Shown here in pieces: positions 27,741 to 31,690 of a stretch of DNA of 39,251 bases. The translations under genes were made by a program, and so were the position numbers. This stretch comes from Solobacterium sp. (GTDB lineage Bacteria; Bacillota_I; Bacilli_A; Erysipelotrichales; Erysipelotrichaceae), in NCBI GenBank assembly GCA_017539385.1, contig JAFYHC010000051.1, positions 1 to 39,251 of the forward strand, given 5' to 3'. How positions within the stretch are numbered: position 1 is the stretch's first letter; every line of letters starts with the position of its first letter. The notes under the pieces are model-generated. The model was not told the DNA's origin and did no database searches. It worked only from the letters and a program-made list of their open reading frames with translations.

Positions 27741-30125
27741 TCATTGTTTGTTCAGTTTTTGATCCATCTCTTCCGAAACGGATAATACTCTCTGTACGAA
27801 TTTCTGCAGTTCTGCATCGATTGGCCGGTGCATTGCAAAGCCGCGCTCAAAGCGGGAAAGATAGTGCTGGAAGAAATCCGACAGTTCGACATCTTCGATC
27901 TGCAGCGGCAGGATCTCCAGACCGTCTCGGCTCATTTTCTGGGCATTGAATACTTCGCATTCCACTTCTGAAGAAGCATTGGATCCTGAGGAGATCAATA
28001 CGATGAAAATCTTTGTCTGTTTCAGTGCTTTCATGATCTGTTCAGGATAGGAACCATAGCGAATATCCCGCTCATAATACCATGCTTTCTCCCCGTTTTC
28101 TTCAAGCATGCGCGCCAGTTTTACGGCAGCTGCACTGTCACGGTGGTTGTAGCTGATGAAGATAAGGGTGCGCCGGTAACTGCCCGGTGCGAGCTTTTCA
28201 CCGATCACTTCGCCATACTTTATCAGCATTTCTTCTTCGCTGATCTCCCCTTCATTCAGTGCTTCGCGGTCCAGAACCATCTCTTTGAGAGACTTCCGGG
28301 ACAATGTCATCTCTTCGTATTCTTCCTCCGTGAGCCAGTCATCATCTTTAATGCAAAGTTCATTTCTAGTCAATTCAATGATGCGGTCAAGCATGGATCC
28401 GACACCGCGTTCCCGGTCAATAATACCGCTTTCCCCGTTTTCGCTCTTTGTGCATAACGGAATGGCATATGCCAGCACAAATGCATCTGCCATTGCCTGA
28501 AAGATATCCCCTGATAACGGCAATGGGAAGTATGCAAGAGAAAACAGAGAAAACTGCGATGCAAACAGCAGAATCCGTGCACCATACAAAGCCGCCAGTG
28601 CCAGCATCAGATTGCGTCCATAGCTGTTGGCTGCCCTGGCAGCTCCTTTGTACAAAGCCCACACCAACACAATACTGCTCATGAATATGATGATGCCCGG
28701 GATCCAGCCTGCTTTCAGCAGGAATGCCATAGGCAACTCCCGGAGTGATCCCATGGAATAGAAATCCACCGCCGGCATATCATACATGGTATAGGAAGAT
28801 GTTCCAAGCATTTGCACCTGCTTTAATGTCTCCATATACTCTGCAGTCCACGGCCTTTCAATTCCCGGTGCGATCAGCTTTGACCAGAGCGGAGACGTAA
28901 ACAGCAGTCCCACCACAGCGATGATATACAGCAATACGGGCTTGCGCAGTCCCCTTTCAAACCGGTTTTCATCGGCCAGCAGTCCGGCATACAGCAGTGC
29001 TGCAATTGGCACACCCAGTATCCAGTTTATCGAATGAAACATTAACGCAAATACGAGCGGAATTACCGCAAGGACAAGAAACGGCTGTCCCAGATGACGG
29101 AATTTGTAACTGGTATATTTACTGACCGTATAGGCTCCGCCCATATAGAGCAATGTGATCAATGCCTGCGGGCCGGCTTCCAGATCCCCGATCCGCAGGA
29201 ATTGCCTTGTGCCGGTATGTGATGCGGCGATACTGGCCAGTCCCAGTGAAATCACTGCATACACCGGCATAGCAAGACGCAATTGCAGTTTGATGGGAAC
29301 AAGTTTTCCCAATAATGCGCCGATACATGCACAAAGCAGTATCGATGCGCAATATAGCGGGATCACGGCTGTTCCAAAGCGCAGAACGGCAGTGGCAGCG
29401 GCACCGGTGATAAGAACCAGTGCACATACCAGAATCACTGCCAGTACACCGCGTGAAATGCCATGGTGCTCTGCACGCAGCGCATTTGGAGACAGATGCC
29501 ACAGTTCCCCGTTTTTCTGTCTTTGTATATCTCCCGGCAGGATCGCTTCGATCTCTCCGGAATATACATTGCGTATGATCGTTTCTTCCCGGTATGCGGG
29601 GTCTTCCTTCCAGCGGGAAAGATACAGATTATCCCCTTCCCGCAGATAGAACGATTCCCTGGGTTCAATTTCAATCCTGCGCTTCTCAGGCCATACGATC
29701 TGCAGCAGCTCCTCTTTCTGACGCACCAGTGTCAGCGGCGAAGCAAACAGACGCAGATTATAGCAGTCTTCGATTTCTCTTTGTTCGATTTCTGCAATCG
29801 TGTCAGCATACTTTTTTCCCGGTTTCCATTTCAGGATCTTAACAGCATGTTCTTCAAAATTTACACACGGGATATAGATGCACCGTTTATACCACAGCGG
29901 TTCTCCCAGTGCTTCATGTTCTTTTTTTCCGATCGGGGCAAATACTTCACCATCCGATGCACGCACAAAAAGCAGACGGCTGCCCATAAAGGGCGGATGG
30001 TCTTTTTCCATCTGCTCGGCATCATAAAGATCCCCGTTCGGTTCATTCGCTGACCAGTACCATCTGCCAAAACTGTCCCGTACTTCGCTGTATGCGGTAT
30101 TTCCCTGCAATGCTATCGTCTTCAT
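27741..30125 (-). CDS. Large membrane protein with C-terminal TIR domain
   Basis: 794 residues. A soluble N-terminal part (1-220, rich in Trp/Tyr: FGRWYWSANEPNGD) has no recognised family. About ten hydrophobic helices follow from 222 to about 560; the order of loops, ending PLPLSGDIFQAMADAFVL, loosely recalls FtsW/RodA (SEDS) proteins, where PFISYGGSS is expected. A charged linker (565-650) leads to a TIR domain (653-780) starting TLIFISYNHRDSAAAVKLAR, with IFIVLISSGSNASSEVECEV; a Glu in 720-724 fits the NADase catalytic Glu position. TIR domains cleave NAD+ or make signalling nucleotides in anti-phage defence. Cotranscribed with a SHOCT gene 2 bases upstream and beside a CRISPR array. Confidence 0.8.
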   Translation of the reverse strand: MKTIALQGNTAYSEVRDSFGRWYWSANEPNGDLYDAEQMEKDHPPFMGSRLLFVRASDGEVFAPIGKKEHEALGEPLWYKRCIYIPCVNFEEHAVKILKWKPGKKYADTIAEIEQREIEDCYNLRLFASPLTLVRQKEELLQIVWPEKRRIEIEPRESFYLREGDNLYLSRWKEDPAYREETIIRNVYSGEIEAILPGDIQRQKNGELWHLSPNALRAEHHGISRGVLAVILVCALVLITGAAATAVLRFGTAVIPLYCASILLCACIGALLGKLVPIKLQLRLAMPVYAVISLGLASIAASHTGTRQFLRIGDLEAGPQALITLLYMGGAYTVSKYTSYKFRHLGQPFLVLAVIPLVFALMFHSINWILGVPIAALLYAGLLADENRFERGLRKPVLLYIIAVVGLLFTSPLWSKLIAPGIERPWTAEYMETLKQVQMLGTSSYTMYDMPAVDFYSMGSLRELPMAFLLKAGWIPGIIIFMSSIVLVWALYKGAARAANSYGRNLMLALAALYGARILLFASQFSLFSLAYFPLPLSGDIFQAMADAFVLAYAIPLCTKSENGESGIIDRERGVGSMLDRIIELTRNELCIKDDDWLTEEEYEEMTLSRKSLKEMVLDREALNEGEISEEEMLIKYGEVIGEKLAPGSYRRTLIFISYNHRDSAAAVKLARMLEENGEKAWYYERDIRYGSYPEQIMKALKQTKIFIVLISSGSNASSEVECEVFNAQKMSRDGLEILPLQIEDVELSDFFQHYLSRFERGFAMHRPIDAELQKFVQRVLSVSEEMDQKLNKQ

Positions 30126-30127
30126 AT

Positions 30128-30880
30128 TTACTGCAGCAGTTTCTTCTTCAGCATGTCATATTCATCTTCCGAGATCGCCCCTTCATCCAGCAATTGCTTC
30201 AATTCCCGGATCCGTGCGATCAGGTCTTCTTTCTGACGTTCTTCCTGTACCGGCTTAACATTTACAGTTTCCCGTTCCACCACCGGCATATCGATGACTT
30301 CTGCACCGTATGGCAGTTCTTTTGCCGATGTACTTCCGATATACAATGGCTCACTGTCATCCAGATTCAATGTGATATTGTTGCGGATCCTGGCATCGAT
30401 CGAAGCCGTACATGGGAATGTAATATAGATGCTTTCATCGGTATATACATCCCGCAAGCGCATCTCTGCCATCACCGGTATTTCCTGCGTCTCAATATGG
30501 GAGCGTACATTGCCCCGTGTATCCGATACTTCTTTCCGCCCGGTACCTACCGCTGCACCGATCACCGTGCCAACGCCTGGCATCAGGATCGTACCGATAA
30601 TCGCTCCGGCAAGACGTCCTTTCCGCTTTCCCCGTGTCTGTGTATTGGATACCTGATCCTGTACAAGCACATCCTGAAAACGCGGTCCGTCCCAGTTATA
30701 TCCCAGCACTTCATATTCCCGGCTGTGTCTTTGATCAAACCAGACGACGCCCGGTATGCCTTCGCTGTAATACAGACGCAGTTCTCCGTATCTCCGGTCT
30801 GTAACAAGATCTTCCCGTCCGTTCACATGTTCCAGCTCTATGGAATGTGTCGGATCATCAAAACTACTAAAGAATGACAT
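30128..30880 (-). CDS. SHOCT-domain protein with glycine-zipper segment
   Basis: 250 residues. N-terminal region (1-80) unassigned; residues 88-114 (GRLAGAIIGTILMPGVGTVIGAAVG) form a glycine-zipper-type hydrophobic stretch; a beta-rich region follows (about 130-200); the C-terminal residues 219-249 are a SHOCT domain (DLIARIRELKQLLDEG then EDEYDMLKKKLL). SHOCT is a short oligomerisation tail. No signal peptide. The following TIR gene starts 2 bases after its stop (TAAATATG), so the two are probably partners. AAGGAGG precedes its start. Confidence 0.75.
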   Translation of the reverse strand: MSFFSSFDDPTHSIELEHVNGREDLVTDRRYGELRLYYSEGIPGVVWFDQRHSREYEVLGYNWDGPRFQDVLVQDQVSNTQTRGKRKGRLAGAIIGTILMPGVGTVIGAAVGTGRKEVSDTRGNVRSHIETQEIPVMAEMRLRDVYTDESIYITFPCTASIDARIRNNITLNLDDSEPLYIGSTSAKELPYGAEVIDMPVVERETVNVKPVQEERQKEDLIARIRELKQLLDEGAISEDEYDMLKKKLLQ

Positions 30881-30906
30881 ACCGTCCTCCTTTCCGTTCT
30901 TCCCCC

Positions 30907-30912
30907 ATTATA
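30907..30912 (-). promoter_or_regulatory. -10 box of the SHOCT-TIR operon
   Basis: Minus strand CCGTATAATGG context, about 27 bases before the ATG at 30880. The -35 is weak; a hairpin with TTTT lies just upstream. Confidence 0.5.
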
Positions 30913-30916
30913 CGGC

Positions 30917-30945
30917 AAAACATCCCGATTTCCTGAACCGGGATG
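30917..30945 (-). terminator. Hairpin between the CRISPR array end and the SHOCT-TIR promoter
   Basis: Minus strand CATCCCG - 11 bases - CGGGATG followed by TTTTG. It would weakly terminate array transcription coming from the right. The T-run is short (4), so read-through is likely. Confidence 0.55.
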
Positions 30946-30970
30946 TAAATGTCGTCTGTTCCATACAGAA

Positions 30971-31690
30971 CATTGAACTCCTTCTAGGTAAATGTGAATG
31001 TGATAGTCATGCTTCGCTTGACGGTGCTACTAAAGAGTTTCAATTCCTTATAGGTAAATGTGAACTCGGAAAGCCGTTTATCGGCTCATCATTTTTGCAG
31101 TGATTATGCTGTTTCAATTCCTTATAGGTAAATGTGAACAAGTTCCGTTTTGTTCAGAAACAGGATCTTAGCAACCCCCAGACGTTTCAATTCCTTATAG
31201 GTAAATGTGAACGCTGCATTATCAGAGAGTCGAAGGTGTAAACCGGTTTCAATTCCTTATAGGTAAATGTGAATACGACTGCAAAGAGGGACGCGAACTG
31301 GCGCCTGTGCCGATGTTCGTTTCAATTCCTTATAGGTAAATGTGAACGGATTATTCAATCGATCCCACGACTCTTCCGTTGCCGACGTTTCAATTCCTTA
31401 TAGGTAAATGTGAACCGAGTGCGACAGATACCCTGGACTCAGAGAAAGATACAGGTTTCAATTCCTTATAGGTAAATGTGAACAAGGTGGTAAGAAGCCT
31501 GATCCGGACGGCGACGGCAGCAAGTTTCAATTCCTTATAGGTAAATGTGAACAGGCATAATTGCACTGATAAAGCAGTTTAGATCTACGACGTTTCAATT
31601 CCTTATAGGTAAATGTGAACTATACTAAGACTCAAATCATTGAACTCGCAAAACTTGCCGCGTTTCAATTCCTTATAGGTAAATATGAAC
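30971..31690 (-). CRISPR. CRISPR array, 11 repeats of 29 bases, no cas genes nearby
   Basis: Plus-strand consensus begins GTTTCAATTCC, middle TTATAGG, end TAAATGTGAAC. Repeats start at 30971 (degenerate, 6 mismatches), 31037, 31111, 31184, 31246 (last base T), 31319, 31387, 31455, 31524, 31592 and 31662 (one mismatch, TATGAAC). Spacers are 37, 45, 44, 33, 44, 39, 39, 40, 39 and 41 bases. On the minus strand the repeat ends GGAATTGAAAC, the usual 8-base crRNA handle of type I-B/III systems, so it is transcribed leftward; the AT-rich leader is on the right and the degenerate repeat is at the distal end, as expected. Type is inferred from the repeat only. Confidence 0.97.

What the first reader, a model, noticed from the sequence alone, without database searches (positions are those of the whole stretch)
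27741..31690. TIR-membrane protein + SHOCT partner placed downstream of a cas-less CRISPR array
Seen: a 794-residue protein with about ten membrane helices and a C-terminal TIR domain, a 2-base-linked SHOCT/glycine-zipper partner, and an array whose likely transcription runs into this operon through a weak hairpin. Known: TIR domains are NADase or signalling enzymes in several defence systems, often with membrane partners. Inference: an abortive-infection or membrane-sensing module, possibly one whose TIR is switched by membrane damage. I do not know this exact domain order as a described system.
Basis: partly seen in the sequence, partly recalled or inferred. Interest (0 to 1): 0.72.

Follow-up and report, generated by a model that had tools for sequence, protein, structure and literature searches.

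The report
TIR enzyme on a cell-wall-synthase-like scaffold
Two neighbouring genes in a gut bacterium encode a probable NAD-destroying TIR enzyme built onto a membrane domain with the fold of the cell-wall synthases RodA/FtsW but apparently without their key catalytic residue, plus a SHOCT partner protein; this looks like a new kind of membrane sensor for a TIR enzyme, while the CRISPR array beside it is probably there by chance.

Summary
The gene pair is real. The 794-aa protein (27741-30125, minus) has an N-terminal beta-propeller-like domain that elsewhere is a stand-alone protein, a ten-helix membrane domain, and a C-terminal TIR domain that keeps its catalytic Glu (E724). An AlphaFold model of the membrane part, made without any SEDS sequence, matches RodA and FtsW (Z 20.7-22.1; next membrane family Z 14.3). 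The SEDS catalytic Asp is missing at the aligned position (Arg here, Ala in the one relative), so it is probably a pseudo-SEDS scaffold. The SHOCT gene lies 2 bases upstream.

The operon occurs in one other genome, a Solobacterium MAG from sheep gut, at the same chromosomal site, and in no other genome searched (70 of the genus, 273 of the family, 392 of the phylum). That genome lacks the CRISPR repeat, while the putative operon promoter is conserved there, so the array is not part of the system. Nor is the array orphan: the genome has a type III-D cas locus with near-identical repeats. The neighbours are metabolic genes, not a defence island. Best guess: a membrane-sensing TIR NADase used in abortive defence; the defence role is inferred, not shown.

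The parts
27741..30125 (-). CDS, 794 aa: propeller-like N domain + SEDS-fold membrane domain + TIR domain
   Evidence: ORF; Pfam TIR_2; AlphaFold model, mean pLDDT 79.6; relative in L037 split into two genes
29487..30125 (-). N-terminal domain, residues 1-213, all-beta; found elsewhere as a stand-alone protein of about 215 aa
   Evidence: pLDDT above 90 for most blocks; also on Paraclostridium plasmids as 'hypothetical protein'
28434..29456 (-). Membrane domain, residues 224-564, ten helices, SEDS (RodA/FtsW) fold; the position of the SEDS catalytic Asp is Arg462
   Evidence: VIA-align Z 22.1 to RodA 6bar and FtsW 8bh1; profile alignment weak but collinear; Asp position
27759..28172 (-). TIR domain, residues 652-789
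   Evidence: Pfam TIR_2 E 2.6e-14; VIA-align Z 17.1 to SPARTA TIR over 131 residues
27954..27956 (-). Codon of Glu724, predicted catalytic residue of the TIR
   Evidence: Aligned with SPARTA E77; Glu in the relative and in the 16 further TIRs read
30128..30880 (-). CDS, 250 aa: beta-rich part, glycine-rich segment (residues about 88-115), C-terminal SHOCT domain
   Evidence: relative 70% identical
30907..30912 (-). TATAAT element of the operon's probable own promoter
   Evidence: conserved with flanks (TGTTTTGCCGTATAATG, and GGTTCAGGA further upstream) in L037; not reported by the consensus scan, so the -35 is weak or different
30921..30945 (-). Hairpin CATCCCG/CGGGATG followed by four T, between array and SHOCT gene; weak terminator at best
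   Evidence: sequence; not reported by the terminator scan; one arm altered in L037
30971..31690 (-). CRISPR array, 10 repeats plus a degenerate terminal copy; judged a neighbour, not part of the system

Best explanation
A two-gene, membrane-bound TIR system. The TIR domain is probably an NAD-cleaving enzyme held in the cytoplasm at the end of a ten-helix scaffold that has the fold of a SEDS cell-wall synthase but has lost the catalytic Asp. In the resting cell the scaffold and the SHOCT partner would keep the TIR domains apart or closed. A change felt through the membrane domain (a lipid-linked wall precursor, membrane damage or a phage protein) would bring TIRs together; they would consume NAD and stop growth, most likely as abortive defence. 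Shown by computation: domain order, SEDS fold, TIR fold with catalytic Glu, N-in/C-in topology, operon with a partner conserved in two genomes, patchy distribution. Inferred: enzyme activity, what is sensed, role of SHOCT, defence.
For: TIR_2 match; E724 aligned with SPARTA E77, whose E77A mutant served as the catalytic control in NAD hydrolysis assays (PMC10474274); Glu in all 18 TIR sequences read; TIR fold Z 17.1. SEDS fold Z 20.7-22.1 for six RodA/FtsW rows, next membrane family WaaL at 14.3, with no SEDS sequence in the input alignment. Positively charged loops between TM2/3, 4/5, 6/7 and 8/9, as expected for both ends inside. SEDS catalytic Asp absent in both members while present in all ten reference SEDS. 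Trio kept together in G037 with order preserved, present in only 2 genomes, and the SEDS part 28% identical while flanks are 54-98%: the pattern of a fast-evolving accessory module.
Against: No defence genes nearby. Only two members are known, so constraint on the active site rests on one pair plus general TIR conservation. Other nearby genes are also divergent (Nudix 54%, MocA 66%), so fast change is not unique to the operon. SHOCT relatives elsewhere stand without TIR. No assay exists; some TIR domains are scaffolds rather than enzymes.
Confidence: 0.45

Rival explanations
1. A cell-envelope stress or wall-synthesis regulator of these bacteria, not defence: the SEDS-like domain senses wall precursors and the TIR acts as a signalling or scaffold domain.
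For: SEDS fold; metabolic neighbourhood in both genomes; SHOCT and N-domain relatives are common genus or family proteins in non-defence settings.
Against: Found in 2 of 70 genus genomes, unlike a housekeeping regulator; canonical SEDS genes are elsewhere in the genome; catalytic Glu conserved.
Confidence: 0.25
2. A toxin-antitoxin pair: the SHOCT protein restrains the TIR toxin; maintenance or selfish role.
For: Partner gene first, 2 bases apart, 70% conserved while the SEDS+TIR part is 35%.
Against: Chromosomal at a fixed site in both genomes; SHOCT relatives occur without TIR.
Confidence: 0.14
3. The TIR makes a nucleotide signal (Thoeris-like) for a separate effector encoded elsewhere in the genome.
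For: TIRs of Thoeris make signals from NAD (PMC11204291); several other TIR proteins in the genome; weak ThsB-profile matches.
Against: No ThsA-like gene in the operon or near it; the partner is a SHOCT protein.
Confidence: 0.12
4. A type III CRISPR accessory: transcripts of the array or cyclic oligoadenylate made by the III-D complex switch the TIR.
For: Array adjacent and pointing at the operon; a III-D locus exists in the genome; Cat1, a CRISPR-associated TIR, is among structural matches.
Against: No CARF or SAVED domain found; the N domain is all-beta and the membrane part SEDS-like; array and repeat absent from G037; the putative operon promoter is conserved without the array; the III-D locus has its own Csx1.
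Confidence: 0.04

Closest known systems
SEDS glycosyltransferases RodA / FtsW (PDB 6bar, 8bh1, 8p1u, 6pl5)
   Same: Ten helices, long loop between TM7 and TM8, overall fold (Z 20.7-22.1)
   Different: 10-12% identity, no Pfam match, catalytic Asp replaced, fused to a TIR and to a propeller-like domain
SPARTA (short Argonaute + TIR-APAZ)
   Same: TIR fold and catalytic Glu; NADase effector of defence
   Different: No Argonaute or APAZ; membrane scaffold instead of a nucleic-acid sensor
TIR-STING (CBASS) and Cat1 (type III CRISPR TIR)
   Same: TIR effector attached to a sensing part
   Different: No cyclic-nucleotide-binding domain recognised here
Thoeris (ThsB TIR with ThsA; TM-macro variant in PMC11204291)
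   Same: TIR and membrane domains in one defence theme
   Different: There the TIR and membrane parts are separate proteins and the partner carries macro or SIR2-SLOG; here they are one chain with a SHOCT partner

Membership tests
TIR NADase | TIR fold | tested here: met
   Pfam TIR_2 E 2.6e-14; Z 17.1 to SPARTA TIR, 131 residues, 1.9 A
TIR NADase | catalytic Glu | tested here: met
   E724 aligned with SPARTA E77; kept in the relative and 16 other TIRs
TIR NADase | NAD cleavage | not testable with these tools
   needs an enzyme assay
SEDS glycosyltransferase | SEDS fold, ten helices | tested here: met
   model built without SEDS sequences; Z 22.1 to 6bar, 283 residues, 4.1 A; membrane-region confidence is moderate, mostly pLDDT 60-88, with the TM7-TM8 loop near 45
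SEDS glycosyltransferase | sequence match to PF01098 | tested here: not met
   no match at E up to 1, nor in the genome scan at E up to 10; profile-profile score 30.6, P 0.0034
SEDS glycosyltransferase | catalytic Asp before TM8 | tested here: not met
   Arg462 here, Ala in G037 at the aligned site; all ten reference SEDS have Asp; alignment in this loop is uncertain
Thoeris | ThsA partner (SIR2-SLOG or TM-macro) beside a TIR | tested here: not met
   partner is SHOCT; no other defence gene among tested neighbours
CBASS / type III CRISPR TIR effector | CARF, SAVED or STING sensor domain | tested here: not met
   only the TIR part of such profiles matches; N domain all-beta, middle SEDS-like
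type III CRISPR accessory gene | conserved linkage to CRISPR-Cas | tested here: not met
   no array in the syntenic locus and no such repeat in the relative's genome; based on two genomes
SHOCT-domain protein | C-terminal SHOCT domain over Pfam cut-off | tested here: met
   32.8 bits against 27

The most novel reading that the evidence does not exclude
A cell-wall synthase fold that has lost its catalytic Asp works as the receptor of an immune enzyme: it senses lipid-linked wall precursor or membrane injury during phage attack and switches on a fused TIR NADase.
Probability: 0.25. Interest if true: 0.82.

Novelty: new variant of a known kind. Interest (0 to 1): 0.56.

Why it matters
Bacterial TIR enzymes are known with many sensors, but none that I know of carries a SEDS-fold domain, and the paper searches combining TIR with SHOCT or FtsW found nothing (open-licence papers only). 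If it senses the wall-building pathway, it would be a bacterial guard of a core process that phages and antibiotics hit, and it is directly testable with a point mutant (E724A) in a laboratory host.

Tried and rejected
Link to the CRISPR array: rejected on synteny and on the relative's lack of the repeat. 'Cas-less' status: rejected at genome level. Defence island: PADLOC on ten window proteins found nothing. Spacers against phages: only chance-level hits. Virus or plasmid carriage: no relative in viral contigs; no SHOCT match in phages; on plasmids only the N domain or the TIR part. More members of the SEDS+TIR family: none beyond G037. Sequence proof of SEDS: PF01098 fails; hhalign is suggestive only (212 collinear columns, score 30.6; reversed control 14.0; best unrelated membrane protein 27.6 over 22 columns; window sequence alone only 18.9). 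First AlphaFold run on the single sequence: useless (mean pLDDT 39.4). BFVD search: no match at E 0.001 or better. N domain: no Pfam family; Foldseek gives only weak matches to propeller proteins, so 'propeller-like' is a lead.

Full report
What is there. The window is a whole contig (G000:C26) of a 2.7-Mb, 85%-complete assembly. The only relative with a name is a Solobacterium MAG from sheep jejunum (JAFWNG010000015, same length and locus as G037:C35), placed in the same genus, so the host is probably a gut member of the Solobacterium group. Two ORFs on the minus strand, 30128-30880 (250 aa) and 27741-30125 (794 aa), are two bases apart. Pfam finds SHOCT in the first and TIR_2 in the second, both over the curated cut-offs.

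Domain anatomy. Residues 1-213 of the long protein match stand-alone proteins of about 215 aa in more than twenty genomes of the family, in varied neighbourhoods, and hypothetical proteins on Paraclostridium plasmids. In G037 this part is a separate gene, in frame with the next but for one stop codon and 18 bases. Residues 224-564 hold ten membrane helices; residues 652-789 are the TIR.

The membrane part. Sequence methods do not settle it: no PF01098 match; profile-profile alignment of the two members with ten true SEDS gives 212 collinear columns at score 30.6, against 14.0 for the reversed control, but the window sequence alone scores only 18.9 and one unrelated membrane protein reaches 27.6 over 22 columns. 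Structure is much clearer. AlphaFold with 19 rows, none of them a SEDS protein, gave mean pLDDT 79.6. VIA-align places RodA and FtsW structures in the first six rows (Z 20.7-22.1, 269-302 residues, rmsd 3.8-4.7); the next membrane family, the O-antigen ligase WaaL, has Z 14.3. Foldseek also lists FtsW and RodA, with modest E-values near 0.002-0.008. Loop charges put both ends in the cytoplasm. The catalytic Asp of SEDS enzymes (from my own knowledge the residue mutated as D255A in RodA structure 6bas) aligns with Arg462 here and Ala in G037, while all ten reference SEDS have Asp; the alignment in that loop is uncertain, so 'pseudo-SEDS' is likely, not proven.

The TIR. The profile of the two members aligns E724 with residue 77 of the SPARTA TIR, and E77A is the catalytic control mutant in PMC10474274. 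The Glu is present in the relative and in the 16 further TIR domains read. TIR structures from SPARTA, plants, SARM1 and Cat1 all match (Z about 14-17).

Distribution. The SEDS+TIR gene occurs in G000 and G037 only: 273 family genomes, 70 genus genomes, 395 of the class and 392 of the phylum (overlapping sets), no viral contig. SHOCT relatives over most of their length exist in about nine further genus genomes but never next to a TIR in the loci read. So the system looks like a rare combination of parts that exist separately in the genus.

Synteny and array. In G037 the operon sits between the same genes: GH1 95%, MFS 85%, LysR 88%, RpiB 98% identical. Within the operon identity falls from SHOCT 70% to N 56%, TIR about 48% and SEDS 28%. 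In G037 the MFS-SHOCT gap is about 130 bp and has no array, and its genome has no such repeat. A stretch around TATAAT is conserved upstream of SHOCT, so the operon probably has its own promoter. In G000 the repeat also occurs on C87 and, one base different, on C55 beside Cas10d, Csx10-like Cas5, three Cas7/Csm3-like proteins, Csx19 and a CARF-HEPN Csx1. The window array is therefore most likely a satellite array of a type III-D system that happens to lie here.

Mechanism. I favour a membrane-sensing TIR NADase used in abortive defence. Steps shown by computation: domain order, folds, catalytic Glu, topology, operon partner, patchy occurrence. Steps inferred: NAD cleavage, trigger, role of SHOCT (a paper that tested SHOCT as an oligomerisation domain did not support it; PMC3581485), and defence. 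The neighbourhood is metabolic, which gives no support to defence. An envelope-stress role is the main rival.

Novelty. TIR fused to sensors is a known theme; a SEDS-fold scaffold in that place is, to my knowledge, undescribed, and the paper searches I ran found nothing (open-licence papers only). Two members make it a narrow finding, hence a middle score.

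Noticed in passing
G000:C55, locus L066:155-9710: Type III-D cas operon (Cas10d, Csx10-like Cas5, Cas7/Csm3 proteins, Csx19, Csx1) with no cas1 found in the assembly.
   Followed up: partly
G000:C15, locus L068:6642-7766 (+): 374-aa protein with a tubulin/FtsZ-like N-terminal half (PF00091, E 8.4e-5, below cut-off) and a C-terminal TIR domain; an unusual pairing.
   Followed up: no
G000:C82, locus L055:9866-10927 (-): 353-aa protein with the TIR most similar to the window's TIR within the genome (40% identity); its N-part looks macro-like by eye but has no Pfam match.
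   Followed up: no
G000:C48, locus L175:1264-2661 (+): A divergent SEDS protein (PF01098 E 9e-24) with the catalytic Asp kept, beside the normal FtsW-like gene on C99; 55% identical relative in G067 (L166).
   Followed up: partly
window 29487-30125 (-): Stand-alone relatives of the N domain are spread through the family and on Paraclostridium plasmids with no Pfam family: an unnamed conserved family.
   Followed up: partly
L136:4776-7324 (+): A SHOCT relative in G067 lies directly after a 608-aa membrane protein that looks like a CASTOR-type ion channel by eye.
   Followed up: no
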